Program-made: the position numbers and the translations under genes
In this document: piece by piece, positions 20,568 through 33,135 of the stretch
Numbering within the stretch: position 1 is the stretch's first letter
Layout of the letters: each line of letters begins with the position of its first letter
Notes under the pieces: generated by a model
What the model saw: only the letters and a program-made list of their open reading frames with translations
Database searches by the model: none
Told to the model about the DNA's origin: nothing
NCBI GenBank assembly: GCA_031291335.1
Contig: JARLJF010000074.1
Location: 1-64,000, forward strand
Length of the DNA: 64,000 bases
Direction of reading: 5' to 3'
Source: Pandoraea sp.
Lineage (GTDB): Bacteria; Pseudomonadota; Gammaproteobacteria; Burkholderiales; Burkholderiaceae

Positions 20568-23500
20568 TCAGAACCGCCAGGTCGCCGATACCGAACCCGC
20601 TACGTCAGCATTCCCCGCCTTGTAGACGTTGCTCGATACCGCCGCCCCCAACACCACGCGCTGCGCCAGTCGATACGACACCCCAGCCTGCAACCCAAGG
20701 CTGTCTCGACCCACCACCTCACTGCGTGTCGTGAAGGTCGCGCCCGGATAACCCGCGAAGTAGGCACTCTGTGTCACCGCACCGCCCGTCAACTCATGGT
20801 TCCACGTGACCTGCAAATTCCCCGTCAACGCATTGCCCGTAATCATCGGCAACTCGAATCGCACCTCACCGCCAAGACGGCTGCGCAGCGAATTGAACGT
20901 CTTGCCGTCAACGTGCAAACGCACACCGTCAGCATTCCCCTCAGTCAGGCTCGGGCGATACAAGGCCGTGTAGTCGAGCGCCGCAACCGGCCCCGCACTC
21001 GTCGTGCTACTCAACTGCCAACGCCATCCCCCGCCCAGGGTCGCCGACGCCGTCGCACCCGTCCATGTCCCCCGCGGGCTGGCCGAATACCCGTTCACGG
21101 CAATCGTGCGGTCAACCCGGCCATCCTCCACCCCCGCCCGCACCGACGCAAACGCATGCGGCCCAGCACTCAGATCCGGCGCGTAACGCGCATGCACGCC
21201 GACGTCCAGTGCCGTGGTCCTGCCGGAGCCAGGCGTCTGTCCGTCCAGACGTGTCGACTGACCACTGACGGCACCATGCGCGCCAAACGTCCAGTCACGT
21301 CCCTCGCCTGCCACCTTCTCGACGCCGAACACCACGCCATACGTGTTGCCGCTCGCGCCCGCCATGTCGCCGTCGCGACTCCGCCAGTACCCGCTGCCGA
21401 ACGGCATCGCGAATGCCCGCCAATTTCCCTTGAGCGCGCCTTCACCTGCGCCCTTGACGCCATCGGCCCCCACTGCGGCCGCCACCATGTCGGTGATCTG
21501 GCGTTCGCGCAACAAGCCCCCGGTGAACATCGCCCCGTACGCCGCCGGTGTGAGTTGAGGCAACGTCTTGGCAATGCCGCTACCGTCGGCCGACGAAAAG
21601 TCGAGCGCGGTAACGAGGGGCTGCAAGTCCGCGCCAACACTCCCCGCAATCTTGTCGAGCGCCGCGCCGACCCGCTGGCCGTTACCGTCGGTGCCGTACT
21701 GGGAATAAGCATTCGCTACGCGCGCCACCGCCACACGATAGGTGTTGCCGCCGAGCGACGTCGCAGAGGACACGAGCGTCGGTGACGACAGCGAGGTCGT
21801 GACGTTGGCAAAGGCCCCCGTGATACTGGACGCACTGAGCCACTGGTCCGACGTGACGCTGAAACCGTTCGCGTACCAACTACGTTGCGGCGCGATCGCG
21901 AGCGTGCCGTCCAGAGTCGCGTTGCCAGAGACCAGCAATTTGCTGAAGCTGCCATCCCCCGAGAGTGCAGACAGCAGCCGTCCCGTGCTGGTTTGGGTAT
22001 AGCCGCCGTCGATACTGATGAAGCTCCCCACCAACAACGGCGCGACAGTGCCCTCGTTGACGAAGTGTCCGGCAGCGTTGAGCCGGTAGCGGCTGTTGCC
22101 GCTGAGCATCGCGCCGTTGGCGACAGCGACGTCGTAGACGGTATGGTCACCGTTGATCTGCGTGGTCCCGCCAACCATCGACACCGACAGGTTGTCACCC
22201 ACGATGTCGCCGTCGAAGCGCAGGTTGAAGGTTGAATCAGGCTGCGTGGTCGCTCGACCGTTCGCGTCGGGCGTCAGGCCGAATTTGAGTTGCGTCAGGC
22301 GCAGCGCACCGTTACCGTCACGCTGCGAGTAGGACGAGAGAATGTCGCCATAAAGCGCCGCCCCGCGCATGATATTGATCTGTCCGACATAGCCGCTCTC
22401 GGACATGTAGAGCGAGGCGAATTTTCCGGCGAGCCGGCCCGTGACATCGACTTGCGATACCAGCGGCCCGTCGATTTCGTCGGGCAACGCCAGCGCTTTG
22501 CCCGACTCTTCGCGAATGTACGAGCCACGATATTCGAGGTTCTGCCCTTCTCCGAGAGGGTTGTAACCGAAATCGAAACTCGCCGCGATGCCGTGCTCGC
22601 CCATTGCCTGAACGTCGCCACGCTGTACGAACGTGTGGTTTTTTCCGTAGGTAAACATCACGCCACGACCATAGGCGCCGTCGGCATACACACGGGTTCC
22701 AGGCAGCACGGTGACGGTATTGGCAACGCCGTCGACCCGAACGCCCGCGCCCCCGGGGCCGCTGGTCAACAGATCAGCCAGTTGCGAGACGTTGTTGTAG
22801 CTGCCGTAGATGTGCAGCCCCAACCCTTGCGTAGCGGTGTTGTAAGCGTTCGGCACGTAAGCCGTGCCATCCGCGTTGCGACCGAAGTAAGGTCTGTCGT
22901 TGACGAGTGTCAGGCCGTCGTTGTAGATCGAACGGCCAAAGAAATTGCGACGATCGATGTCATAGCCGAGGTCCTGAAGCGCCGCCAGTTCGGCTTCCAT
23001 GAACCCGGTGTAATTGCGATACGACTGATGACTCATCAAGCTGTTTTTCAACTCGATGTGGGACATGAATGGCAGGTCAGGGTACTTGACGTTGTCGGTC
23101 GTGGCCGTCGTGGACACGGGAATCCCCTTCATCGCGCCTGCCAGCACTTCGCTCACGTGATTGCCCGCAAAGTACCCACCCTCATCACTGACGTCGAACG
23201 GATTGGCTGACGGCGTAGCGACACAAACCGGACAATGGATCACCTGTCCCGGCTGGGCCGGATTGCCCTTACTGTCGCGCAAATGGGAGGTCCAGACATC
23301 GAGTTGGTCAGGGAAGGACGCGGTGTACGGTGCCGACCCCGAATAGTTCATGACGATATTGGCACCGATGCCCAGGCTGTGGGCCACCTCGTGAAAAATC
23401 ACCGCAGGCAGATCGGCCTGCCGATTGAGCGGGATCTGCGACGGGATGTACGGCGCCGTCGAGAACTTCATGTCGGTGATGGTGATTTCCCCGTGCGCTC

Positions 23501-23924
23501 CGTAAAATTTAGGCTCAGGAACCTCGTTTTTAAGCAGCATTGAAACCACGAGCGTGTTGGCGCCCTTCTCGTCGGCACCAAACGGACTGTAGGCATGGGT
23601 GCCTCCAGTGTCCGACAGGCCGATGTTGAGGATCGCTGGCGTCTGCCCCTGCGGGAACCTCAGGATTTCGCCCCAATAGCGCAATGCCGCCACCGTCTGA
23701 GCCCTTTGCGTTGCCGAAATAATACCGCTGGACGGCACCCCTTCCTCACCCGCTTTGTCCGGCGCCCGATAGTTGCCAAAGGAAGGCGTCACAAAGCGCG
23801 CAGTGATGAATGGCACTCCGTTTGCATCAGTGATGTACTCGATATCGTCGTCTGCGTCGGCCACTGGCGACACCATCATGCAAAGCGCCGCAAACGCGAC
23901 GCCAGTCATCCGAATCGTCTTCAT
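20568..23924 (-). CDS. Autotransporter with an N-terminal zinc-metalloprotease motif
   Basis: An 1118-residue type V secreted protein. The signal peptide is about residues 1-24. The N-terminal region has a zinc-protease motif, [10 protein letters not shown], at residues 178-187; the metzincin third histidine is not in place, so the third ligand must come from elsewhere. A Cys pair follows in VIHCPVCV. From about 340 to 760 the sequence is rich in G/N/D/V repeats typical of a beta-helix passenger. The last 280 or so residues form the autotransporter barrel, which ends in SATWRF with the terminal phenylalanine. The protease domain may be displayed or released. It is transcribed divergently from the tiny-peptide genes, with about 300 bases between them. 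Confidence 0.87.
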
Positions 23925-24103
23925 TCAGTACTCCGTATCCATTTTTGGCTTTTGTAATGCTTTGAAATACGAAGCGAATGGTACGGAGTACCCCTGGGAG
24001 AGTCACTGCGATTTATACGGGGTTTGAAACTCATCGCCCGCAAGCCATTGTTAAGCAAAGACTTTTTCAGTCTCCCTACCGCCGATTTCCGGAAAACCGG
24101 CCC

Positions 24104-24121
24104 AACTTGTACTAATCACAG
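24104..24121. promoter_or_regulatory. Candidate operator, copy 1 (AACTTGTACTAATCACAG)
   Basis: This 18-base element lies 103 bases before the first tiny peptide ORF. It matches 17 of 18 bases of the element at 32393-32410 near the other peptide ORF. Its core resembles the dyad TTGTACAA. A weak -10-like GATACT follows at 24145-24150, placing the element near the -35 position. The rest of the 23925-24224 gap also holds the divergent autotransporter promoter, which I cannot place. Confidence 0.5.
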
Positions 24122-24224
24122 TTTCGCCAGGAAGGGCCGGTGACGATACTTCACTCACCGACTGACGCAACACAGCGGCAGCCGAAACCCGAAACCACGA
24201 CACACCGAATCAAGGAGAAACACC

Positions 24225-24299
24225 ATGCCCGCCATCATCACCTACGGCTTTCCCGCACTCCTCGGCCTCGTCGGCGTCATCGCCCCGATCTTCGGCTGA
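24225..24299 (+). CDS. Tiny hydrophobic peptide 1 (24 aa)
   Basis: A 24-codon ORF behind a near-ideal ribosome-binding site (ATCAAGGAGAAACACC then ATG). The peptide is almost wholly apolar: MPAIITYGFP, then ALLGLVGVIAPIFG. It has no charged residue and could insert in a membrane or assemble with others. The ending GLVGVIAPIFG resembles GLVAIFPFIG of the peptide at 32198-32275. The strong ribosome-binding site, GC-rich codon use and following related ORFs argue that it is expressed. It is the first of a series closed by a terminator at 24701. The function is unknown; a secreted surfactant, signal or bacteriocin-like peptide, or a membrane-acting toxin, are all possible. Confidence 0.65.
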   Translation: MPAIITYGFPALLGLVGVIAPIFG

Positions 24300-24349
24300 A
24301 CCGCCGCTCCCCCGCCCCTAAACCCGACCTGAACCCGGAGAACGACACC

Positions 24350-24454
24350 ATGAGCCACCTCTACGACTTCATCGAGAGCCTTCTGACCAACGACACCTGC
24401 GTCGAGGCCGGCATGCAGTGCGCCATCACCGTCGGCCACGTCTTCGGCTACTGA
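24350..24454 (+). CDS. Small peptide 2 (34 aa, two cysteines)
   Basis: A 34-codon ORF with GGAG nine bases ahead of its ATG. The peptide is MSHLYDFIESLLTNDTC followed by VEAGMQCAITVGHVFGY. The first half is an acidic amphipathic helix; the second is apolar. Cys17 and Cys24 could pair. It lies 50 bases after peptide 1 in the same direction, with peptide 3 following. It is less hydrophobic than peptide 1, so it may be a partner peptide or an immunity/regulatory element. No family is known to me. Confidence 0.55.
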   Translation: MSHLYDFIESLLTNDTCVEAGMQCAITVGHVFGY

Positions 24455-24507
24455 GCCACTGACAGGCCGAACACGATTACCCAACTCGTTCATCAAGGAG
24501 AAGCAAC

Positions 24508-24582
24508 ATGCTGGAAATCCTCGCTCGCGGCGTCATCGAACTGTATGAAAAGGTCGCTCCGCTCCTGCCGATCCACTTCTGA
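24508..24582 (+). CDS. Tiny amphipathic peptide 3 (24 aa)
   Basis: A 24-codon ORF with the same leader as peptide 1 (ATCAAGGAGAAGCAAC then ATG). The peptide, MLEILARGVIELYEK then VAPLLPIHF, would form an amphipathic helix with apolar residues spaced three or four apart and charged residues (Glu3, Arg7, Glu11, Glu14, Lys15) on the other face. This shape is shared by phenol-soluble-modulin-like and other membrane-active peptides, an analogy only. The following sequence at 24606 is a clear sister copy. Confidence 0.65.
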   Translation: MLEILARGVIELYEKVAPLLPIHF

Positions 24583-24605
24583 ATCACGGCTCCAGGAGAA
24601 ACAAC

Positions 24606-24689
24606 AGGGTCGACGTCCTCATTCGCCTGGGTACGGAACTGTTTGAAAAATTCGGTCATCTTCTGCCCTTCGCCCGTGAATCAATATGA
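24606..24689 (+). pseudogene. Sister copy of peptide 3 without a start codon
   Basis: After AGGAGAAACAAC, matching the leader of peptide 3, the position of ATG reads AGG. The frame then continues open for 27 codons: VDVLIRLGTELFEKF, then GHLLPFARESI. It aligns with peptide 3 without gaps (LEILARGVIELYEK against VDVLIRLGTELFEK; LLP in both). The ribosome-binding site and reading frame are intact, so only the start codon seems lost. Either it is a recent pseudogene, a sequence error, or an unusual start is used. Confidence 0.6.
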
Positions 24690-24700
24690 ATGCCACGAAG

Positions 24701-24728
24701 AAAGGACCGCCCCGGAGCGGTCCTTTTT
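24701..24728 (+). terminator. Rho-independent terminator after the peptide ORFs
   Basis: AAGGACCGC / GCGGTCCTT stem around CCCGGA with a T run, 12 bases after the last peptide frame. It marks 24225-24700 as one transcription unit separate from the response regulator. Confidence 0.9.
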
Positions 24729-24750
24729 CTTTGCGCTTCAAGGCGAAGCC

Positions 24751-24840
24751 ATGTCGCAGAACCGATATGTCACCGATGTGGCATTAGAGGAAATTTCGCC
24801 GCACGGTGATTTTTTAGTAGGATTTCACTATTCCATATAA
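24751..24840 (+). CDS. Possible 29-codon ORF
   Basis: An ATG with AAGG eight bases upstream opens a 29-codon frame (MSQNRYVTDVALEEIS, then PHGDFLVGFHYSI). Its codons are AT-richer than the neighbours. It ends 18 bases before the response regulator. It may be a leader peptide or chance; the AT-rich end (CCATATAAAAA) looks more like the promoter of the regulator. Confidence 0.25.
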   Translation: MSQNRYVTDVALEEISPHGDFLVGFHYSI

Positions 24841-24858
24841 AAAAACGGGGCCAAAGGG

Positions 24859-25461
24859 ATGTCATCTCCCACCAAAGTTTTCTGCATCGAAGACGACCGT
24901 GATTCGGCAGACCTGATTCGCGAGGATCTGACGGATCGGGGCTATGTCGTCAAAGTGGCGCACGACTTTACGACGGCACTGGCGACGCTCGCGTCATTCA
25001 TGCCGGATGTCATCCTGTGCGACGTCAATGTGCCGGGCATGACCGGCTTCGAGTTTCTGGAAAGCGCCCGCAGCATCATTCAGGGCGAACGCAAGATCCC
25101 CTTCATCTTCCTGACAGGCAACGCGGACAAGGAATCGATCATGCGCGGGCACAGCACCGGCGCCGACGAGTACATGCTCAAGCCGGTCGACTTCGACGTG
25201 CTCGACACCGTCATCCGCAAGTACACCGAGCACGAGGAAATGCCCGATGGCACGCCGCTGCCGTTCGGCCTGACCAAGCGGGAGGTGGAGGTGCTGCAAT
25301 GGTCGGCACGCGGCAAGACATCGGCCGAAATCTCGATCATTCTCGATCTGGGCAAACGCACGGTGGACTTCCACATCGACAACGCCCGCGAGAAGCTCAA
25401 TGTCGCCACGCGCACCGAAGCCGTGGTACGCGCCGCACTGCTCAATATCATCCAGCTTTGA
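24859..25461 (+). CDS. Response regulator, receiver plus LuxR-type HTH
   Basis: A 200-residue two-component regulator. The receiver has the acidic pocket Glu11-Asp12-Asp13, phosphoacceptor Asp55 in ILCDVNVPG, Thr86 in FLTGNAD and Lys108 in YMLKPVD. The C-terminal LuxR/NarL-type HTH begins LTKREVEVLQWSARGKTSAE and contains KRTVDFHIDNAREKL. The linker is short. The histidine kinase gene starts 36 bases downstream. It is 130 bases after the terminator of the tiny-peptide series, so the peptide genes and the candidate operators at 24104 and 32393 are natural targets, though this is inferred. Confidence 0.93.
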   Translation: MSSPTKVFCIEDDRDSADLIREDLTDRGYVVKVAHDFTTALATLASFMPDVILCDVNVPGMTGFEFLESARSIIQGERKIPFIFLTGNADKESIMRGHSTGADEYMLKPVDFDVLDTVIRKYTEHEEMPDGTPLPFGLTKREVEVLQWSARGKTSAEISIILDLGKRTVDFHIDNAREKLNVATRTEAVVRAALLNIIQL

Positions 25462-25497
25462 TCGCCTCAGATCTCATTTCCGCGACGGATCGCCCGC

Positions 25498-27081
25498 ATG
25501 GCTAAAGCGTCTTCATCACCCAACAAGCAACTCCCGATCCGGCGCAGGATGTACCTCCTGCTCGCCCTCTGCCTCATCGCCATGATCGCGGTGGGCGTGG
25601 TGGTGCACCGCGAAGTCGACACCTCCCAGCGCCGTGCCATCGAGGCCGAACGCACGCAGATCGAACACCTCACGGTGCTTGAGGAACTCAACGACTACAT
25701 CTCGGACTTCCGCACCGTCGAGTCGGAAGCCCTGGCCCCGATGTCGCCCAAGGCGCTCGCCGATATTCGCGCCGCCGCCGCAGAATTCGACGACAAGATC
25801 AAAACGGCCGCCGAGCGCTATCAGAAGGTGCTCGTCCACGACGAATTCCGCCTGGCTTTCTCGAAATTCCAGACGCAATGGGCCCAATACCGGCGCGCTT
25901 CGAATCAGGTGTTTCAACTCGCGCAGGCCGGCAAACTGAACGACGCCGCGAAGCTCTATCGCGGCGAGTCGAACAACAAATACACGCAAGCGAACAGCAC
26001 CTTCGGTTCGCTGGTGTTTCGCAGCACCGAAGCCCTGATCAAGGAAGTCGAGGCCAAGAACAAGACGGCCCGCAACCGTCTGCTGCAAATCGACGGCCTG
26101 ATCGCCGCGATGATCGTTGTCACGCTGCTCTGTCTGATCTATGTGGATACGGTCATCCTGAAACCGCTCACGCGCCTGATTCGGCTGTCCGGCAGCGCCG
26201 TGACAGGCAAGGAAAAGCTGCGCCTGCCGTGGCTGTCGCGTGGCGATGAAATCGGCACGCTCTCGCGCTCGCTGGCCAAGTTCCAGGAGAGCACGTCGTC
26301 GCTCGTGCGCAACCAGAAGCTCGCCACGGCCAAGAACACGATCCTGCAACGCGCGCTGGCCAACGAAGAACGCCTCAACAACTTCCAGAAGACCTTCAGG
26401 TCGATGGCCACGCACGAGTTCCGCACGCTGCTCAACGTGATCGACGGCCATGCGCAACGCCTGCTGAGCCCGCGCAACGAGGAAACGGATTCGAGCCCCC
26501 GCTATACGAAGATTCGCGAAGCGGTCGGCAAGCTCAACAATCTGATTCAGAACTGGCTGGATGCCGCGCAAAGCGCATCGCTCGACGATCCGAAGTTCGG
26601 CAAACGCACGGAGCTGTCACTCGTCGCGCTGCTCGAGGACGTGCGCGGCGTCGGCTCGGACATGTTCCCGAGCGCGACGATCACCGTGCAAGCCGCGCAG
26701 GGTCTCGACAGTCGCATGATCGGCGACAGCAACGTGCTGTTCCATGCCTTCATCAACCTGATCAGCAACGCCACCAAGTACACACTGGCGGCGCCCGCCA
26801 TCGACATCGGCGTGTCCGACGCCGGCGAAGCCTTGCGTGTGGTCTTGCGCGACAACGGCACCGGGATTCCGGAGGACGAACTCAAGGAGATCTTCCAGAT
26901 GTCGTTCCGCTCGCGCAGCAATGCCGTGCTGGAGGACGGTTCCGGCGTGGGACTTGCAGTGGTTCACGCCGCCATCGAGTTCCATAAGGGCACGATCGAA
27001 GTGACGAGTCAGGTCGGTGTCGGCACCACGTTCACGATCATGCTGCCGAAATCGCCTCAGACCAACGAGGCCACCGCCTGA
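25498..27081 (+). CDS. Membrane sensor histidine kinase
   Basis: A 527-residue kinase. TM1 is about residues 19-37 and TM2 about 200-217. Between them is a helical periplasmic domain of about 160 residues with the look of a four-helix-bundle (chemoreceptor-like) sensor. A HAMP-like region follows (residues 218-270). The phosphoacceptor His306 lies in MATHEFRTLLNVI. The ATPase domain has the N box in NLISNATKYT, G1 in DNGTGIPEDE and G2 in GSGVGLAVVHA. The periplasmic bundle could detect a small ligand or membrane state. It forms a pair with the regulator 36 bases upstream and ends at a strong hairpin. Confidence 0.93.
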   Translation: MAKASSSPNKQLPIRRRMYLLLALCLIAMIAVGVVVHREVDTSQRRAIEAERTQIEHLTVLEELNDYISDFRTVESEALAPMSPKALADIRAAAAEFDDKIKTAAERYQKVLVHDEFRLAFSKFQTQWAQYRRASNQVFQLAQAGKLNDAAKLYRGESNNKYTQANSTFGSLVFRSTEALIKEVEAKNKTARNRLLQIDGLIAAMIVVTLLCLIYVDTVILKPLTRLIRLSGSAVTGKEKLRLPWLSRGDEIGTLSRSLAKFQESTSSLVRNQKLATAKNTILQRALANEERLNNFQKTFRSMATHEFRTLLNVIDGHAQRLLSPRNEETDSSPRYTKIREAVGKLNNLIQNWLDAAQSASLDDPKFGKRTELSLVALLEDVRGVGSDMFPSATITVQAAQGLDSRMIGDSNVLFHAFINLISNATKYTLAAPAIDIGVSDAGEALRVVLRDNGTGIPEDELKEIFQMSFRSRSNAVLEDGSGVGLAVVHAAIEFHKGTIEVTSQVGVGTTFTIMLPKSPQTNEATA

Positions 27082-27103
27082 GGCCTTCGGGCTCGCGCTG
27101 GAC

Positions 27104-27144
27104 GGACACGCAAAAGGCCGGCAATGCCGGCCTTTTGCGTGTCC
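27104..27144. terminator. Perfect 19-bp hairpin, bidirectional terminator
   Basis: GGACACGCAAAAGGCCGGC is repeated exactly in reverse complement after an AAT loop. Each arm has AAAA or TTTT beside a GC block, so it can terminate both the kinase transcript and the convergent efflux operon. Confidence 0.9.
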
Positions 27145-27186
27145 TGCTGATGTCTTCCGACTCCCGCTGCTGCGGGGCCATCCCCT

Positions 27187-28632
27187 TCAGGCGGGCGGCG
27201 CCACATCCGCAGGATCGTTCGAACCGCCCAGCGCCTTGTAAAGCGCCATACGGTTGTTCAGCCGGTTCAGGCGCACCCGCGCGTCGGCGGTCTGCGCGTC
27301 GCGCAGGCTCTTTTGCTGAACAAGCCAGGGTTGAATGTCGATGGCGCCCGCCAGGTAGCGTGATCGAAAGAGCGCTTCCGCGCGCTGGGCCTGCGCCAGC
27401 GACAAGGCCCGCTGCTCGCCCTCCTTCGTCAGTTGCTCTTTTGCCGAGAGCGCATTCTCGACCTCGCTCAGGGCCGTGAAGAGGCTCTTCCGGAAGTCCA
27501 CCGCCGCTTCGTCAAATTGCGTTTGCGACACCTTGATCTGCAATTGCATGGTGTTCCACTGGATGAACGGCAGCGCGAGTCCCAGTCCCACGGTTCCCAA
27601 GGGATTGGACAGCACGCGTTCGAGCGACGAACTCGTCGTGCCGAGGGTGCCCGTGAGCGTGAACGTCGGATAGAAACTCGTGCGTGCGACGTCGACATTG
27701 GCGAGCATCTTTCGCAGCCGCAACTCGGCGGCGCGCAGATCCGGCCGGTGGCTCAGCAGTTCGGCCGGCAACCCGGCCGGCACGATCGGCAACGCCTGCG
27801 TGGGCAGCGCAGACGGCTCGGCAGCCGCCTGCTGCGGTGGCCGGTCGAACAGGATCGCCAGTGCGTTACGGTTCTCGGTGCGTTGTTGCAACAGGAGCGT
27901 GAGCGCTGCGCGCTGGTCCGACAGCGACTGCTCGGCTTGCGCCACGTCCAGCGCCGAGACGGCGCCTGCGGCAAAGCGCGAGCGAACCAGCGCGAGAACT
28001 TGCGCGCTGTACGCGATATCGCTTTCGGCGTAAGCGATCACCTGATTCAAATACCCGATCTGCCAGTAGTACTGCGCCGTCTGGCTGATCACCGCCAGCC
28101 GCGCCGTTTCGCGGTCGGCCTCGGTGGCCTCGAACTCCCAGCGGGCGGAATCGCGTTGCGCGGCGAGTTTGCCCCACAGATCCAGTTCGTAGCTCGCCGT
28201 GCCCGTGAGGCCACTGGTTTGCGTCATCGCGTGGTTATCCAGCCTGCGCGACACGCTGCCCTGACCTTGCACCGTCACACCGGGGGTGAGATTGGTATCC
28301 GCCAGACCCGCTTGCAACTGGGCGCGATACGCCCGGATACCCGCCATGGCGAGATCGTTGTTGACAGCCAGCGCGTCGGCGATCAGACGGTCGAGCACCG
28401 GGTCGCCAAACGCACGCCAGAAGTCAGGCGCGATCGTGTCGGCTGTAGCGAGTGGCGCCGCAGCGGTAGCGGACGCTACCGGCGCCCCCGTCCACTGCGT
28501 CGGGACCGGCACGGCCGGCAGCGGATCGTGACGCACGCCGGCGCAACCTGCCAGTAGTGTGGCTGCGCTGGCGAGCGCGAGTACCGTGCGGGTCAGCGCC
28601 GGGATTCGGATCGTAGAAAATTCTCGAGTCAT
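27187..28632 (-). CDS. TolC/NodT-family outer membrane efflux lipoprotein
   Basis: A 481-residue outer membrane factor. The signal peptide ends in a lipobox (LLAGC), so it is lipidated. Two duplicated TolC halves follow, with the typical DFWRAFGDPVLDRLIADAL at the start and long helical hairpins later (AELRLRKMLANVDVARTSFYP in the second half). It forms the channel of a tripartite pump. The start at 28632 lies 11 bases after the macB stop, and GAGGT overlaps that stop; the frame extends to 28854 but only by overlapping macB. It is the last gene of the macA-macB-tolC operon. Confidence 0.92.
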   Translation of the reverse strand: MTREFSTIRIPALTRTVLALASAATLLAGCAGVRHDPLPAVPVPTQWTGAPVASATAAAPLATADTIAPDFWRAFGDPVLDRLIADALAVNNDLAMAGIRAYRAQLQAGLADTNLTPGVTVQGQGSVSRRLDNHAMTQTSGLTGTASYELDLWGKLAAQRDSARWEFEATEADRETARLAVISQTAQYYWQIGYLNQVIAYAESDIAYSAQVLALVRSRFAAGAVSALDVAQAEQSLSDQRAALTLLLQQRTENRNALAILFDRPPQQAAAEPSALPTQALPIVPAGLPAELLSHRPDLRAAELRLRKMLANVDVARTSFYPTFTLTGTLGTTSSSLERVLSNPLGTVGLGLALPFIQWNTMQLQIKVSQTQFDEAAVDFRKSLFTALSEVENALSAKEQLTKEGEQRALSLAQAQRAEALFRSRYLAGAIDIQPWLVQQKSLRDAQTADARVRLNRLNNRMALYKALGGSNDPADVAPPA

Positions 28633-28643
28633 CAGACAGTACC

Positions 28644-30728
28644 TCAATCGCGTGCAAGGGCTTCGACCGGGTCCAGCCGCGCCGCATTGCGCGCAGGCAT
28701 GAAACCGAACACGACGCCGATGAGCGTCGAACACAGGAAAGCCGTGACCACGGACCCCATCGAAAACACCATTTTCCATTTCTCGACAAACAACGAGAAG
28801 ATGAAACTCGCGCCGAAGGACAGCGCGATACCGATAGCGCCGCCCATCAGACACACCATGACGGCCTCCACCAGGAACTGCTGCATGATGTCGCTCTGCC
28901 GGGCCCCCACCGCCATGCGGATTCCGATTTCGCGCGTGCGCTCGGTGACCGACACGATCATGATGTTCATCACGCCGATGCCGCCCACGACGAGCGAAAT
29001 CACGGCAATCAGCGAGAGCAGCAGGGTGAGCGACTGGCTCGTCTTCTCGACGGTCTTCACCACGCTATCCATGTTGTAGGTGAAGAAGTCCTTGCGCCCG
29101 TGGCGTTGCGTCATGAGCGTTTCAAGACTCTTCTCGGCCGCCTTGCTCGGCTGACCGTCACGCACCCGCACCGTAATGCTGTCGACATTGCGCTGCCCGA
29201 ACAGACGGCCAGCCGCCGTGGTGTACGGCACCCAGATGTTCAGGCTCTTCATGTCGCCAAAGGCGCTCTTCTTCTCTGCCGTCACGCCAATCACCACGCA
29301 CGGCAGGTTGCCCACGAAGATCACCTCGCCCAGCGGGTTCCGATTCGTGCCGAACAGTTTGCGACGCGTGTTCTGGTCGATCACCGCGACCTGCGCCTGG
29401 CGACGCACCTCGTCCGGCCCGAAGGCAATACCCTGCGCGATCTTCATGCCGCGCACCTGGAAGAAGTGCTCGCCCACACCCGTCACCATCGCGCTGCCAT
29501 CGATATTGCGATACCGCAGCAACAGGCTGCGCGCCGTCTCCGGCGTGACGCTGTCGACATAGACCTGCTCGGACAGCGCACTCACGTCTTCGGGCACGAG
29601 CGTCTGAATCGTGGTGGCGCGATTGTCGCCCCAGTCCTTGCCGGGATAGATGTTGATCGTGTTCGTGCCAATGCTGCCGATCTCGGCCAGCATGTAGCGC
29701 TTCGCCCCTTCGCCGATCGCCACGATGGAGACGACCGACATAATGCCGATGATGATCCCGAGCATCGTCAGGAAGGTGCGCAGACGGTGCGACACCAGCG
29801 CGATCCATGCCATGCGGAATGCCTCGGCAAACCGGCCGATACCGCCGTGCCAGAGGTGCGGCGGCAACGCCCCGCCGTGACTGGCGTCTGCCGCAGCGGG
29901 ATCGGCTGAGCGTGCGATCGAGGTAACGCGCCCGCCGGGGGCTGCCGCCTCGCCTGCCTCGCTTGTACCCTCCGCTGCCACCACGTCGGGAACATCGACC
30001 ACGGGCGTGTTCGCCCGGTCGGCCACGACCTCGCCGTCGCGAATCTCGATGATGCGGCGGGCGTGCGCGGCGACCTTCTCGTCGTGGGTCACGATGATGA
30101 CGGTGTGCCCGAGCGCGTTGAGTTCCTTCAGAATCCGGATGACTTCCTTGCCGCTGCGCGTATCGAGTGCGCCAGTCGGCTCATCAGCCAGAATCACCTC
30201 GCCACCATTCATCAACGCGCGTGCAATACTCACACGCTGCTGCTGACCGCCCGACAACTGGCTCGGCCGATGACCGGTACGGTCGGCGAGTCCCAGCCGT
30301 TCGAGCAACTTCTCCGAGCGCGCGCGACGCGCCGCGTGCGGCATGCCGGTGTAGACCGACGGCATCTCGACGTTGGAGGCGGCGTCCAGGTGCGGCAACA
30401 AGTGATACCGCTGGAAGATGAAACCGAAGTGTTCGCGGCGCAACTGGGCCAGCGCGTCGGCGTCGAGATCGCGCGTTTCACTGCCCGCCACGCGGTAGCT
30501 GCCCTCGCTCGGGTGATCGAGACACCCCAGAATGTTCATCAGTGTCGACTTGCCCGAGCCCGACGCGCCCATGATGGCGACGATCTCGCCCGCATCGATG
30601 GTGAGATTCACATCGCGCAGCACGACGACATCGCGGTCCCCCGCCGGAAAGCGCCGGGTGATGCCGGTTAGCTCCAGCATGGGGTGCGGGCTGGCGTTCA
30701 AGGGGGATTGGGCAATGGCGCTCGACAT
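28644..30728 (-). CDS. macB: MacB-type ABC exporter (ATPase fused to permease)
   Basis: A 694-residue MacB-type mechanotransmission transporter. The N-terminal ATPase has Walker A GASGSGKST, signature LSGGQQQR and Walker B VILADEPTGALD. A linker of about 80 residues follows (rich in Ala, Gly and Pro, longer than usual). TM1 is near TFLTMLGIIIGIMSVVSIVAI, then a large periplasmic domain, and three C-terminal helices (LLLSLIAVISLVVGGIGVM, ILVEAVMVCLMGGAIGIAL-like, and VVTAFLCSTLIGVVFGFM). MacB exports macrolides, peptides, lipopeptides and siderophores. The macA gene is 30 bases upstream. A nearby tiny peptide gene makes a peptide substrate plausible, but this is inferred. Confidence 0.94.
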   Translation of the reverse strand: MSSAIAQSPLNASPHPMLELTGITRRFPAGDRDVVVLRDVNLTIDAGEIVAIMGASGSGKSTLMNILGCLDHPSEGSYRVAGSETRDLDADALAQLRREHFGFIFQRYHLLPHLDAASNVEMPSVYTGMPHAARRARSEKLLERLGLADRTGHRPSQLSGGQQQRVSIARALMNGGEVILADEPTGALDTRSGKEVIRILKELNALGHTVIIVTHDEKVAAHARRIIEIRDGEVVADRANTPVVDVPDVVAAEGTSEAGEAAAPGGRVTSIARSADPAAADASHGGALPPHLWHGGIGRFAEAFRMAWIALVSHRLRTFLTMLGIIIGIMSVVSIVAIGEGAKRYMLAEIGSIGTNTINIYPGKDWGDNRATTIQTLVPEDVSALSEQVYVDSVTPETARSLLLRYRNIDGSAMVTGVGEHFFQVRGMKIAQGIAFGPDEVRRQAQVAVIDQNTRRKLFGTNRNPLGEVIFVGNLPCVVIGVTAEKKSAFGDMKSLNIWVPYTTAAGRLFGQRNVDSITVRVRDGQPSKAAEKSLETLMTQRHGRKDFFTYNMDSVVKTVEKTSQSLTLLLSLIAVISLVVGGIGVMNIMIVSVTERTREIGIRMAVGARQSDIMQQFLVEAVMVCLMGGAIGIALSFGASFIFSLFVEKWKMVFSMGSVVTAFLCSTLIGVVFGFMPARNAARLDPVEALARD

Positions 30729-30758
30729 CCTCGGCTTCCTCTTCCTTTTCCTTTGCCT

Positions 30759-31946
30759 TCACTGACCCGCGCTGGCCGAATCTGCGACCGGCGTGGACTC
30801 GCCCGCCTCGCCGATCACGACACGCTCGCCAGCCTTGAGCCCCTCGCGCACCTCGACCTGCACGTTGTTGTTCAGACCGGTGACGACCTGACGCGTCACC
30901 GCTTTGCCGTCGTCACCCAACACACGGACCTCATAACGGTCGGCGCCGACCTTCTTGCCGAGCGCCGCCACCGGCACGCTCAGCGCCTGCTTGGCCGTGC
31001 CGAGCAACACATTGACCTGCGCCGTCATCGAGATGCGCAGGCGATGATCCGCGTTCGGCACCTCGAACAGGGCGTTGTAGAACACGGCCGTGTTGTTGCG
31101 CGTAGCACCGCCGCCGAGCGTGCTCTGCGTATCGAGGAAGTTCTGCGGAGCGGGTTCGATCGCGCGCAGCTTGCCGTAGTAGCGCTTGTCCGGGTCGCCC
31201 AGGATCGTGAAGTACGCCGTCTGCCCCGGCGCCACACGGATCACGTCGGCCTCCGAGACCTGCGCCTTCACCGTAATCGTGTCCAGATCGGCAAGCTTCA
31301 GGATCACCGGCGCCTGCTGCTGCGCAATCACGGTCTGGCCTTCCTGCGTGACGATCGCGACGACCTCACCGTCGATGGGGGCGTCGATGCGCGTGTAGCC
31401 GACGTTGGCTCGGGCCGACTCGATGGCCACACCGGCCTTGCGCAGTTGCGCATCGAGCGCCGCGAGCGTGGCACGCTGCGTGTCGAGCGCGGCTTGTGCC
31501 GACTCGAAGTCCTGACGCGAGGTCGAGTTGTCGGGCAGCATCTGCTGTTGACGCACAAACGCCAGTTCCGCCTGCTTGAGCTGCGCGGCGGTGGAACGCT
31601 TCTGCGCCTGAAGGTTCTGTTCGTCGGCCTCGGCCTGACGCAGACTGTTCTGCGCCAGCACCGGGTCGATCTGCGCGAGCCATTGCCCCTTCTTCACCTT
31701 GTCGCCGAGCTTGACCTTGAGCGACTTCAACTGCCCCGAGACCTGCGCGCCGACGTCGACCTGCTGGAACGCCTGAAGCGTGCCGGTGGCGAGAACGGTG
31801 TTTTCGAGATCGTTGCGCTCGACCTTGGCGCTGATGTACTGCGGCGGCTTCGGGGCCGCAAGACTACGCAGACCGAGCACCACGAGAACGACGAGCACGA
31901 CAAGGCTGGCGACAAGATAGCGTCGGCGGCGAATGAACTGGATCAT
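30759..31946 (-). CDS. macA: MacA-type periplasmic adaptor (membrane fusion protein)
   Basis: A 395-residue adaptor with an N-terminal membrane anchor (YLVASLVVLVVLVVLGLRSL). A barrel-sandwich hybrid domain follows (ATGTLQAFQQVDVGAQVSGQ, then VKLGDKVKKGQWLAQID), then a helical hairpin of about 90 residues, then the lipoyl return arm (YTRIDAPIDGEVVAI). It links MacB to the TolC channel and stimulates the ATPase. It is the first gene of the pump operon. The gap to the upstream peptide ORF is about 250 bases; I see no clear terminator in it, so read-through from the peptide gene is possible. Confidence 0.94.
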   Translation of the reverse strand: MIQFIRRRRYLVASLVVLVVLVVLGLRSLAAPKPPQYISAKVERNDLENTVLATGTLQAFQQVDVGAQVSGQLKSLKVKLGDKVKKGQWLAQIDPVLAQNSLRQAEADEQNLQAQKRSTAAQLKQAELAFVRQQQMLPDNSTSRQDFESAQAALDTQRATLAALDAQLRKAGVAIESARANVGYTRIDAPIDGEVVAIVTQEGQTVIAQQQAPVILKLADLDTITVKAQVSEADVIRVAPGQTAYFTILGDPDKRYYGKLRAIEPAPQNFLDTQSTLGGGATRNNTAVFYNALFEVPNADHRLRISMTAQVNVLLGTAKQALSVPVAALGKKVGADRYEVRVLGDDGKAVTRQVVTGLNNNVQVEVREGLKAGERVVIGEAGESTPVADSASAGQ

Positions 31947-32197
31947 GGAACGAAGTAGGCGATCAAAGAGGCACGTCGAAAAAAACGCTGCGCAAATCCG
32001 TTGCCACTGGCTGGCCGGTTGGTCTGCCGGTCGAACGGACCGGCTCGATCACCGCCCCGAGGCACCGTTCGGAGCACAAAAAGTTGAGAGTTTAAGACGT
32101 TTGGCGGCTTTACAGACCATCCTTACCAAAGACCGCAGCAAAGATATCCCGCCAACAACGACGACGAACAGGCTGTGACACTGAAAAAGAACGCGCA

Positions 32198-32275
32198 TCA
32201 ATGCGTGCCGATGAAGGGGAAAATGGCGACCAGACCGTCGATGAGGTTGGACAGCAGACCGGGAACGTAAGGCAT
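32198..32275 (-). CDS. Tiny hydrophobic peptide 5 (25 aa), upstream of macA
   Basis: A 25-codon ORF on the minus strand with a strong ribosome-binding site (ATCAAGGAGTCCGTC then ATG). The first nine bases equal the leader of peptides 1 and 3. The peptide is MPYVPGLLSNLIDG then LVAIFPFIGTH. Apart from Asp13 and the final His it is apolar. Its GLVAIFPFIG resembles GLVGVIAPIFG of peptide 1, seven kilobases away. It is the nearest coding frame upstream of macA, in the same direction. It may be a substrate of the pump or a co-regulated paralogue of the other peptides. Confidence 0.65.
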   Translation of the reverse strand: MPYVPGLLSNLIDGLVAIFPFIGTH

Positions 32276-32392
32276 GACGGACTCCTTGATGTAGTAGAAA
32301 GACGACTGGCTTCTCTCGTCCCGACGCCCGGAAGACCTGTCTGCGGGCGTCGTTTCGTTGGAAGCAGTGTCGCACCGCCCCACCCCCTTGAA

Positions 32393-32410
32393 AACTTGTA
32401 CAAATCACAG
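32393..32410. promoter_or_regulatory. Candidate operator, copy 2 (AACTTGTACAAATCACAG)
   Basis: The element differs at one base from the one at 24104-24121. It contains the perfect dyad TTGTACAA. It lies 118 bases ahead of peptide 5 (minus) and 90 bases ahead of the plus-strand TRIC-type gene. Its written orientation agrees with the plus strand, so it may serve either side. On the minus strand GACACT (32371-32366) follows GGTGC, like GATACT after GGTGAC near copy 1. TATATT at 32471-32476 is the likely -10 of the plus-strand gene. Confidence 0.5.
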
Positions 32411-32499: not shown

Positions 32500-33135
32500 A
32501 TGAAAACAGAGATCTTCTACGCCCTCTACCTGATCGCCATCGTGACCGAGGCGATGTCAGGCGCGATCATGGGGATGCAACGCGGCATGGACCGCTTCGG
32601 ACTCGCCTTCATCGGCATGGTGACGGCGCTGGGCGGCGGCACCATCCGCGACGTGCTGTTCGGCCGCCATCCCCTGGTCTGGATCGCCCACCCGGAGTAT
32701 TTGCTGCTCACGCTGGGGGCGGCGACGCTCACGTCCATCGTCGCGCGCCACGTGCACCGGCTGCGCATGACCTTCATCACCGTCGACGCCATCGGGCTCG
32801 CCGCCTTCACCATCCTGGGCTGCGACATCGGCATGACGGTCAGCACGAGTCCGATCATCGTCGTGCTGGCGGGGGTGCTCACGGGAATTGGCGGCGGTAT
32901 GCTGCGCGACCTGCTGTGCGGTCAGGTACCGCTGGTGCTGCGCCGGGAGATGTATGCGAGCGTGGCGTGTATCGCGGGCGCGATGTACGTGGTCATGCTG
33001 CGTCTGGGGGTCGAGAATGGCCTTGCAACGGGGATCTGCTTCGCCGCAGGCTTCATCATCCGGATGCTTGCCGTGTGGTTCGGCTGGCGTTTCCGCACGT
33101 TCGAGAACGAAGCACCGGCCGAGCCGATGCATTGA
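32500..33135 (+). CDS. TRIC-type (UPF0126) small membrane protein
   Basis: A 211-residue inner-membrane protein of the prokaryotic TRIC cation channel / UPF0126 family. It has a repeat of two three-helix units, each with a glycine motif: GGGTIRDVLFGRHPL in the first and IGGGMLRDLLCGQVPLVL in the second. Six or seven hydrophobic helices are visible. Some relatives conduct monovalent cations; others have been linked to glycine uptake, so the substrate is open. A -10-like TATATT lies 24-29 bases upstream of the start. The gene is alone on this strand. Confidence 0.9.
   Translation: MKTEIFYALYLIAIVTEAMSGAIMGMQRGMDRFGLAFIGMVTALGGGTIRDVLFGRHPLVWIAHPEYLLLTLGAATLTSIVARHVHRLRMTFITVDAIGLAAFTILGCDIGMTVSTSPIIVVLAGVLTGIGGGMLRDLLCGQVPLVLRREMYASVACIAGAMYVVMLRLGVENGLATGICFAAGFIIRMLAVWFGWRFRTFENEAPAEPMH

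What the first reader, a model, noticed from the sequence alone, without database searches (positions are those of the whole stretch)
24104..32410. Candidate peptide system: tiny ORFs, two-component pair, MacAB-TolC pump, shared operator
In 8.3 kb I see tiny peptide ORFs with strong ribosome-binding sites (24225-24689), a response regulator/kinase pair (24859-27081), a convergent MacA-MacB-TolC pump (27187-31946) and another tiny peptide upstream of macA (32198-32275). An 18-base element with one mismatch lies near both peptide loci. MacB pumps are known to export peptides and lipopeptides. The layout suggests that peptides are made, exported by the pump and sensed by the kinase, or act as surfactants or toxins. 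No one of these parts alone shows this. It is inference from layout plus a sequence-level match.
Basis: partly seen in the sequence, partly recalled or inferred. Interest (0 to 1): 0.88.

Follow-up and report, generated by a model that had tools for sequence, protein, structure and literature searches.

The report
Bacterial mini-peptide regulon with export pump
In the bacterium Pandoraea, a set of unrecognised very short, membrane-loving peptides appears to be switched on by the same DNA signal as a neighbouring export pump and a surface protein, which suggests a secreted-peptide system that still has to be tested.

Summary
The window is Pandoraea. The tiny ORFs are genes: they recur across the genus with fixed lengths and match no Pfam or NCBIfam family. 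The 18-base element is half of a rigid promoter: a dyad operator plus a -10-like hexamer at fixed spacing, 22 of 22 elements on the peptide side and 23 of 23 on the macA side. The macA-side copy points to macA, also in the 14 of 23 loci without the tiny ORF there. A looser third copy faces the autotransporter. The promoter led to unlinked peptide genes: 12 of 13 fetched unlinked elements have a Shine-Dalgarno-led ORF of 26-29 codons 98-117 nt downstream (null 88 of 2804). Two megaplasmids carry P1 and P2 fused.

So this is a genus-restricted regulon of leaderless, mostly amphipathic, near-neutral peptides, a MacAB-TolC pump and probably an autotransporter, most likely driven by the adjacent response regulator. 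Export and surfactant- or bacteriocin-like action are inference; sensing is untested. Co-occurrence across genomes reflects only one or two events, and one genome (G031) keeps kinase and pump without peptides found.

The parts
20568..23924 (-). autotransporter (1118 aa), C-terminal autotransporter beta-domain; passenger contains one HExxH motif (HEVAHSLGI)
   Evidence: Pfam PF03797 E 7.4e-36; motif seen directly; no NCBIfam or PDB match at E <= 1
24006..24023 (-). operator copy facing the autotransporter (ACCCCGTATAAATCGCAG)
   Evidence: 0 mismatches to the laxer pattern RNCYYGTAYWAATCRCAG; a copy on this strand upstream of the regulator gene in 22 of 24 loci at <=2 mismatches
23978..23983 (-). 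-10-like hexamer TACCAT, 40 nt downstream of the start of that operator
   Evidence: CTCCGTAnCAT kept in 16 of 24 loci
24104..24121 (+). operator 1, dyad YTGT-N7-ACAG
   Evidence: in the window's own copy the right arm is ACAG and the left TTGT
24145..24150 (+). -10-like GATACT, 41 nt after the start of operator 1, 17 nt after a poor -35 (TTTCGC)
   Evidence: 22 of 22 elements at exactly this spacing; alignment A5
24225..24299 (+). P1, 24-aa peptide MPAIITYGFPALLGLVGVIAPIFG
   Evidence: SD AAGGAGA; 17 of 32 genus genomes at E < 1e-12
24350..24454 (+). P2, 34-aa peptide with two Cys
   Evidence: SD GGAGA; 23 of 32 genus genomes at E < 1e-10, one of them (G012) on a plasmid only
24508..24582 (+). 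P3, 24-aa amphipathic peptide
   Evidence: SD AAGGAGA; 11 of 32 genus genomes at E < 1e-11
24606..24689 (+). diverged copy of P3 without a start codon in the matching place; probably not translated
   Evidence: E 3.8e-7 to the P3 profile; sequence
24701..24726 (+). intrinsic terminator of the peptide operon
   Evidence: inverted repeat followed by a T run
24859..25461 (+). NarL/FixJ-type response regulator (GerE/LuxR-type HTH), proposed activator
   Evidence: Pfam; 92-99% identical in the 23 relatives that carry it
25498..27081 (+). sensor histidine kinase with 4HB_MCP domain
   Evidence: Pfam; 24 of 32 genus genomes
27187..28635 (-). TolC-like outer-membrane factor
   Evidence: PF02321
28644..30728 (-). 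MacB
   Evidence: PF12704/PF00005/PF02687; PRK10535 955 bits against a cut-off of 966; PDB 5nik
30759..31946 (-). MacA
   Evidence: HlyD family; 24 orthologues at 79-100% identity in 32 genomes; a further 49% match in G029 is not counted as one
32198..32275 (-). P5, 25-aa peptide MPYVPGLLSNLIDGLVAIFPFIGTH, between the promoter and macA
   Evidence: SD AAGGAG; 9 of 24 loci
32366..32371 (-). -10-like GACACT facing P5/macA
   Evidence: 23 of 23 elements at exactly 39 nt
32393..32410 (-). operator 2, reads towards P5/macA on the minus strand

Best explanation
A Pandoraea-specific regulon for making and handling short leaderless peptides. Shown by sequence: one rigid promoter type (dyad operator YTGT-N7-ACAR centred 31-32 bp upstream of a -10-like hexamer, poor -35) stands before (i) the operon of tiny peptide genes, (ii) the macA-macB-tolC operon, with P5 in front of macA in some species, and (iii) unlinked peptide mini-genes elsewhere in the genome; a looser version faces the autotransporter. 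Inferred: the adjacent kinase/response-regulator pair responds to an unknown envelope or external cue, and the phosphorylated regulator binds the dyad at about -43 as a class II activator. The peptides (23-34 aa, hydrophobic, mostly amphipathic, net charge 0 to -1 except P2) insert into or cross the inner membrane and MacAB-TolC expels them. Outside they act as a mixed surfactant- or bacteriocin-like cocktail, much as phenol-soluble modulins do with their Pmt exporter. My estimates: peptides are real genes 0.95; shared regulon 0.9; the adjacent regulator is the activator 0.75; the pump exports or clears the peptides 0.5; surfactant/bacteriocin action rather than signalling 0.45.
For: Fixed-length conserved peptides, mostly with an SD. 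pN/pS below column-shuffled controls for P2 (0 of 200 as low), P3 (0 of 200), P5 (4 of 200) and the unlinked family E (0 of 200, only 5 distinct sequences). Element-to-hexamer spacing invariant, 22 of 22 and 23 of 23. The macA-side promoter is kept in 23 of 24 loci, 14 of these 23 without P5, and also in the 10 loci where 1.1-27 kb lie between kinase and tolC. Pattern matches in 14 relatives' loci: 36 of 37 in the three expected regions, reversed-pattern control 0. Unlinked elements: 12 of 13 fetched are followed by a peptide ORF against 88 of 2804 non-coding-like random positions; a further 5 of 5 unlinked hits not used to build the model (L291-L295). A terminator within the 430 nt searched behind 8 of 12 unlinked mini-genes against 9 of 150 random stretches, so these do not look like leaders of downstream genes. 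All 40 strong promoter hits lie in genomes with the kinase. P1-P2 fusion on two megaplasmids. Helical hydrophobic moment at or above the 90th percentile of shuffles for 12 of 16 peptides tried. Distant relatives of the pair (RR 45-52% identical) also sit beside another tripartite-type pump (pump type by my reading, no profile search).
Against: No expression, secretion or binding data. G031 keeps the pair and pump with no intact peptide gene found; the linked peptides of G012 look decayed. P1 pN/pS is not below control (44 of 200). P2 is preceded by only a weak SD in the window and in G005. Presence/absence of kinase, pump and element is explained by 1-2 events on a gyrB tree, so the 24-versus-8 pattern is not independent support. 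Peptides lack an evident signal sequence, while MacB is thought to work from the periplasm (PMC5985334). AlphaFold of P2 was low confidence (pLDDT 64.8).
Confidence: 0.6

Rival explanations
1. The peptides stay in the cell envelope as small membrane proteins that adjust the pump or the kinase (like AcrZ with AcrB, CydX with CydAB or MgrB with PhoQ, names from recall); P5 would be a pump accessory subunit.
For: P5 lies between the promoter and macA in 9 of 24 loci; hydrophobic 24-26 aa peptides fit a single membrane pass; same promoter type as the pump.
Against: P5 is missing from 15 of 24 loci that hold macA, macB and tolC; several unlike peptide families per genome, some unlinked and some on plasmids, turn over fast while the regulator stays 92-99% identical.
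Confidence: 0.2
2. The peptides are signals: exported, sensed by the 4HB_MCP kinase, and feeding back on their own promoter (peptide quorum sensing).
For: Kinase with a 4HB_MCP sensor domain next to the peptide operon; positive-feedback layout through the shared operator; megaplasmids with the same -10 region but another dyad (ACTTCAGGT-N4-ACCTGA) look like a circuit with changed specificity.
Against: Five dissimilar peptides under one promoter type in the own genome are unlike a single pheromone; kinases 82-97% identical to the window's face peptides 36-96% identical; G031 keeps the kinase without peptides found.
Confidence: 0.2
3. The pump and autotransporter are a general envelope-stress response; the peptides are a co-regulated stress product (for example inner-membrane depolarising peptides like type I toxins) and are not pump substrates.
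For: MacB is close to the ordinary macrolide pump; pump and pair persist without peptides found in G031; relatives of the pair sit beside a different tripartite-type pump.
Against: In the loci and genomes searched the promoter was seen almost solely before peptides, pump and autotransporter. Antisense RNAs were not looked for.
Confidence: 0.25
4. Another LuxR-family regulator (an acyl-homoserine-lactone regulator) rather than the adjacent response regulator binds the dyad, which resembles a lux box.
For: Dyad ACCTGT...ACAG centred near -43 recalls a lux box (recall, not tested); GerE-type HTHs are shared by both groups.
Against: The spacer is 7, not 8 (the 8 from recall); strong promoter hits occur only in genomes with this pair; the regulator lies within the locus.
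Confidence: 0.15
5. Tiny ORFs and element are chance or an artefact of a GC-rich sequence.
For: SD-led short ORFs at that distance do occur by chance at 3.1% of non-coding-like positions.
Against: Conservation of length, frame and spacing; prospective hits.
Confidence: 0.02

Closest known systems
Staphylococcal phenol-soluble modulins with the Pmt exporter and its regulator PmtR (PMC5080381, passages seen; peptide properties partly from recall)
   Same: Several short leaderless amphipathic peptides per cell, from operons and separate genes; exporter expression tied to the peptides.
   Different: No family match for these peptides; Gram-negative; MacAB-TolC instead of Pmt; a two-component pair and shared operator instead of a GntR repressor released by the peptides; no activity known.
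Multi-peptide leaderless bacteriocins such as aureocin A70 (from recall)
   Same: An operon of several short leaderless peptides near an ABC transporter.
   Different: Those are cationic; these are neutral or slightly acidic; no immunity gene recognised; activity untested.
MacAB-TolC pumps exporting peptides or secondary metabolites (STII enterotoxin, pyoverdine PvdRT-OpmQ; PMC5985334, passages seen)
   Same: Same pump family; peptide cargo has precedent.
   Different: STII reaches the periplasm by Sec; these peptides have no evident signal; here the pump shares its promoter type with many peptide genes.
Class II activator promoters of LuxR/NarL-type regulators (lux-box type, from recall)
   Same: Dyad centred about -43, weak -35, fixed spacing.
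   Different: 15-bp dyad with 7-bp spacer; regulator and start site unproven.

Membership tests
MacAB-TolC tripartite pump | MacB with N-terminal ABC domain, MacB_PCD periplasmic domain and FtsX permease; HlyD-type adaptor; OEP outer-membrane factor | tested here: met
   MacB 955 bits to PRK10535, just under its cut-off of 966; PDB 5nik/5gko
MacAB-TolC tripartite pump | exports these peptides | not testable with these tools
   needs a deletion mutant and mass spectrometry
Phenol-soluble modulins | sequence membership in a described peptide family | tested here: not met
   no NCBIfam match at E <= 1 and no Pfam match at E <= 5 except one row at E 0.15 taken as chance, 7 peptides each
Phenol-soluble modulins | short, leaderless, amphipathic helix, several paralogues | tested here: met
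   (12 of 16 at or above the 90th percentile of shuffles; helix assumed, leader judged by inspection)
Phenol-soluble modulins | secretion and membrane activity | not testable with these tools
Leaderless bacteriocins | no leader peptide and no modification enzymes in the locus | tested here: met
   none among the eight window proteins scanned in Pfam or the ORFs listed, by inspection; in L101 (G020) a D-Ala-D-Ala-ligase-like gene is inserted nearby
Leaderless bacteriocins | antibacterial activity and self-immunity | not testable with these tools
   needs activity assays
Peptide quorum sensing | kinase senses the peptide | not testable with these tools
   only layout and domain content
Type I toxin-antitoxin | antisense RNA against the peptide mRNA | not tested
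   not looked for
Leader-peptide attenuator | tiny ORF precedes and controls a downstream gene | tested here: not met
   terminator within 430 nt behind 8 of 12 unlinked mini-genes and behind the window operon (none found for 4 of 12); codon-level constraint for four of five families
NarL/FixJ response regulator and histidine kinase pair | receiver + GerE HTH; HisKA/HATPase kinase | tested here: met
   (HisKA at 25.0 bits, just below its cut-off of 26.9)

The most novel reading that the evidence does not exclude
A Gram-negative counterpart of the phenol-soluble modulin system: one two-component pair drives a genus-wide, multi-locus and partly plasmid-borne set of leaderless amphipathic peptides together with a dedicated MacAB-TolC exporter and a surface protein with a protease-like motif; P1 and P2 act as one two-part peptide, and megaplasmid copies with a different dyad form a second specificity group.
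Probability: 0.33. Interest if true: 0.88.

Novelty: new variant of a known kind. Interest (0 to 1): 0.74.

Why it matters
If right, a class of secreted peptides in a genus known from cystic-fibrosis patients has been overlooked because its genes are so short, and their promoter is a tag that finds them. It would give MacAB-TolC a natural peptide cargo and make the question of how signal-less peptides reach a periplasm-fed pump directly testable. The promoter-first search that worked here could be used to find similar mini-gene regulons elsewhere.

Tried and rejected
Rejected: operator 2 as the promoter of the downstream glycine-transporter-like gene (32500-33135): the conserved -10 lies on the other side, towards macA, in 23 of 23 loci. 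Rejected: the DNA between kinase and tolC in other species as a biosynthetic cluster: it holds genes that vary between species (judged by eye on ORF starts, no profile search). Rejected as support: the 24-of-32 co-occurrence, since the gyrB tree needs only 1-2 changes (30 of 32 genomes, G020 and G021 had no locus; a first tree, used wrong frames for several rows and was discarded). Conserved RNA structure in the promoter/UTR stretch: 4 weak pairs, none with a compensatory change. Peptide families in Pfam/NCBIfam: none. Structure of P2: low confidence, not used. P2 outside Pandoraea: none in 366 other genomes of the family (drawn from a larger group) at E < 1e-3 except one match with a stop inside (G032), taken as chance. 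Model hits at E 0.018-0.09 in four genomes without the kinase (G011, G028, G029, G018) were taken as chance, as were L296 and L297, which have no like peptide ORF. The partial model hits (E 1e-7 to 0.02) on replicons of G012 and G019 were not counted among the 40 strong ones; some lie before peptide-like ORFs of 23-51 codons, others look truncated. Literature: searches showed, in the rows listed (for example 15 of 907 and 10 of 851), no paper on these peptides or on a Pandoraea peptide/MacAB system; the library is open-access only, listings were seen as titles and abstract starts, and two papers (PMC5985334, PMC5080381) as passages.
Full report
Setting. The window lies in a 73-kb contig (C139) of a 5.56-Mb Pandoraea genome (completeness 89%); the closest named record with the kinase is Pandoraea sp. 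ASV26 (97% identity).

The tiny ORFs are genes. I fetched the locus from the 24 Pandoraea genomes that carry the kinase, out of 32 examined. Upstream of the response regulator the same short ORFs recur with the same lengths, mostly with a Shine-Dalgarno: P1 24 codons, P2 34 codons (a 28-codon relative in one clade), P3 24 codons, plus other 23-25-codon ORFs in some species. Profile searches found P1 in 17 of 32 genomes (E < 1e-12), P2 in 23 of 32 (E < 1e-10; in G012 on a plasmid only) and P3 in 11 of 32 (E < 1e-11). P2 had no match better than E = 0.4 in the 8 genomes without the kinase and, apart from one match with an internal stop, none below E = 1e-3 in 366 other genomes of the family. P5 before macA is present in 9 of 24 loci. 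pN/pS is below column-shuffled controls for P2, P3, P5 and the unlinked family E, but not for P1 (44 of 200 shuffles as low). No Pfam or NCBIfam family matches.

The element is part of a promoter. On the peptide side 22 of 22 elements are followed by GATACT exactly 41 nt from their first base; on the macA side, read in reverse, 23 of 23 are followed by GACACT at exactly 39 nt. Two of the 24 loci (G012, G031) have no peptide-side element and one (G017) no macA-side element. The element contains a dyad YTGT-N7-ACAR; its centre lies 31 or 32 nt from the hexamer on the two sides, which would explain why it works in either direction (my reading). With a transcription start about 7 nt after the hexamer the dyad is centred near -43, over a poor -35 with a 17-nt spacer: the usual place of a class II activator (established knowledge; start site not measured). 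The macA-side promoter is kept in 23 of 24 loci, 14 of which lack P5, and also in the 10 loci where 1.1-27 kb lie between kinase and tolC, so it serves macA.

A third copy. A looser pattern finds a divergent copy on the autotransporter side in 22 of 24 loci, followed in 16 of 24 by CTCCGTAnCAT at the matching distance. In the window it lies at 24006-24023. Over 14 relatives' loci (L061-L074) the pattern matched 37 times, 36 of them in the three expected regions; the reversed pattern matched 0 times. In four loci of one clade (L097, L098, L101, L104) this copy faces a small lipoprotein-like gene instead and lacks that -10, so this branch of the regulon is less certain.

Prediction and test. One unlinked element in G020 had a peptide ORF behind it. 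I then searched the genus with a 23-base pattern: 24 of 32 genomes matched and none of the 8 without the kinase. It listed 14 unlinked places, one of them the plasmid place already seen in L171 (a 49-codon ORF follows); I fetched the other 13. Of these, 12 have an SD-led ORF of 26-29 codons starting 98-117 nt downstream, including one in the own genome (C151, MPALIYAAEYAFQGLILLSSAAPFFQ); the exception, L242, lacks the rest of the promoter. One of the 12 (L247) is the place that prompted the test, so the strictly prospective count is 11 of 12. Random positions give 907 of 200000, non-coding-like positions 88 of 2804. Several sites are homologous between species, so they are not independent draws. 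A sequence model of the promoter gave 40 strong hits (E <= 4e-13), all in 23 of the 24 kinase-bearing genomes: 22 linked and 18 unlinked. Five unlinked hits not used to build the model (L291-L295) each have such an ORF. Eight of 12 unlinked mini-genes have a terminator within the 430 nt searched, against 9 of 150 random stretches.

Plasmids. The 387-kb plasmid of P. faecigallinarum DSM 23572 and the 633-kb plasmid of P. oxalativorans DSM 23570, both typed conjugative, carry ORFs of 49 codons in which P1-like and P2-like sequences are fused. Fusion suggests that P1 and P2 act together. Some mini-genes there, and one on the G012 chromosome, have the same -10 region but a different dyad (ACTTCAGGT-N4-ACCTGA), found 9 and 21 times in those two genomes and at most once in each of the other 30. 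Of the nine places in these two genomes whose surroundings I looked at, four have a 49-51-codon ORF behind the -10 (L301, L302, L310, L312), one has the -10 without a like ORF and four have neither.

Mechanism. Shared regulation of peptides and pump is well supported. That the adjacent response regulator is the activator is inference from its GerE domain, position, 92-99% conservation and the restriction of strong promoter hits to genomes with the pair. Export is inference from co-regulation and from MacB precedents (PMC5985334, passages), with the unsolved problem that MacB is thought to work from the periplasm. The peptides are hydrophobic, mostly amphipathic and near neutral, more like surfactant peptides than cationic antimicrobials; the nearest analogue in design is the phenol-soluble modulin/Pmt system (PMC5080381, passages).

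Against. The presence/absence pattern reflects 1-2 events. G031 retains pair and pump but no intact linked peptide and no promoter-model hit, and the linked operon of G012 looks decayed. Nothing here measures expression, export or activity.

Verdict. A real mini-peptide regulon that I found in no listing searched; function inferred, not shown.

Noticed in passing
20568-23924 (-): Autotransporter whose passenger contains an HEVAHSLGI (HExxH) motif but matches no protease family; it is less conserved between species (43-84% over the parts aligned) than the neighbouring regulator (92-99%).
   Followed up: partly
L302, L310, L312 (G019:C2) and L301 (G012:C1): A second dyad, ACTTCAGGT-N4-ACCTGA, stands before the same -10/UTR and 49-51-codon ORFs in the two species with megaplasmids (9 and 21 pattern matches; at most 1 in each of the other 30 genomes); it looks like a parallel regulon with another regulator.
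   Followed up: partly
L101 (G020), between the peptide operon and the response regulator: An inserted cassette on the minus strand with a D-Ala-D-Ala-ligase-like gene (Pfam), an MFS-like and a dehydratase-like gene (by eye) and a 210-aa protein whose first 120 residues of a homologue match no Pfam family; L098 and L104 keep only the 210-aa protein among minus-strand ORFs there.
   Followed up: partly
L199 (G054) and L200 (G108): Distant relatives of the regulator/kinase pair lie beside a different, RND-looking tripartite pump (by eye), hinting that this family of pairs generally controls tripartite pumps.
   Followed up: partly
L298, 7983-8429 (P. faecigallinarum plasmid): A short (148 aa) response-regulator gene lies about 570 bp upstream of the fused P1-P2 ORF, near an IS481 transposase.
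   Followed up: no
27112-27136: Symmetric hairpin with T runs on both strands between kinase and tolC, apparently a shared two-way terminator (read by eye).
   Followed up: no
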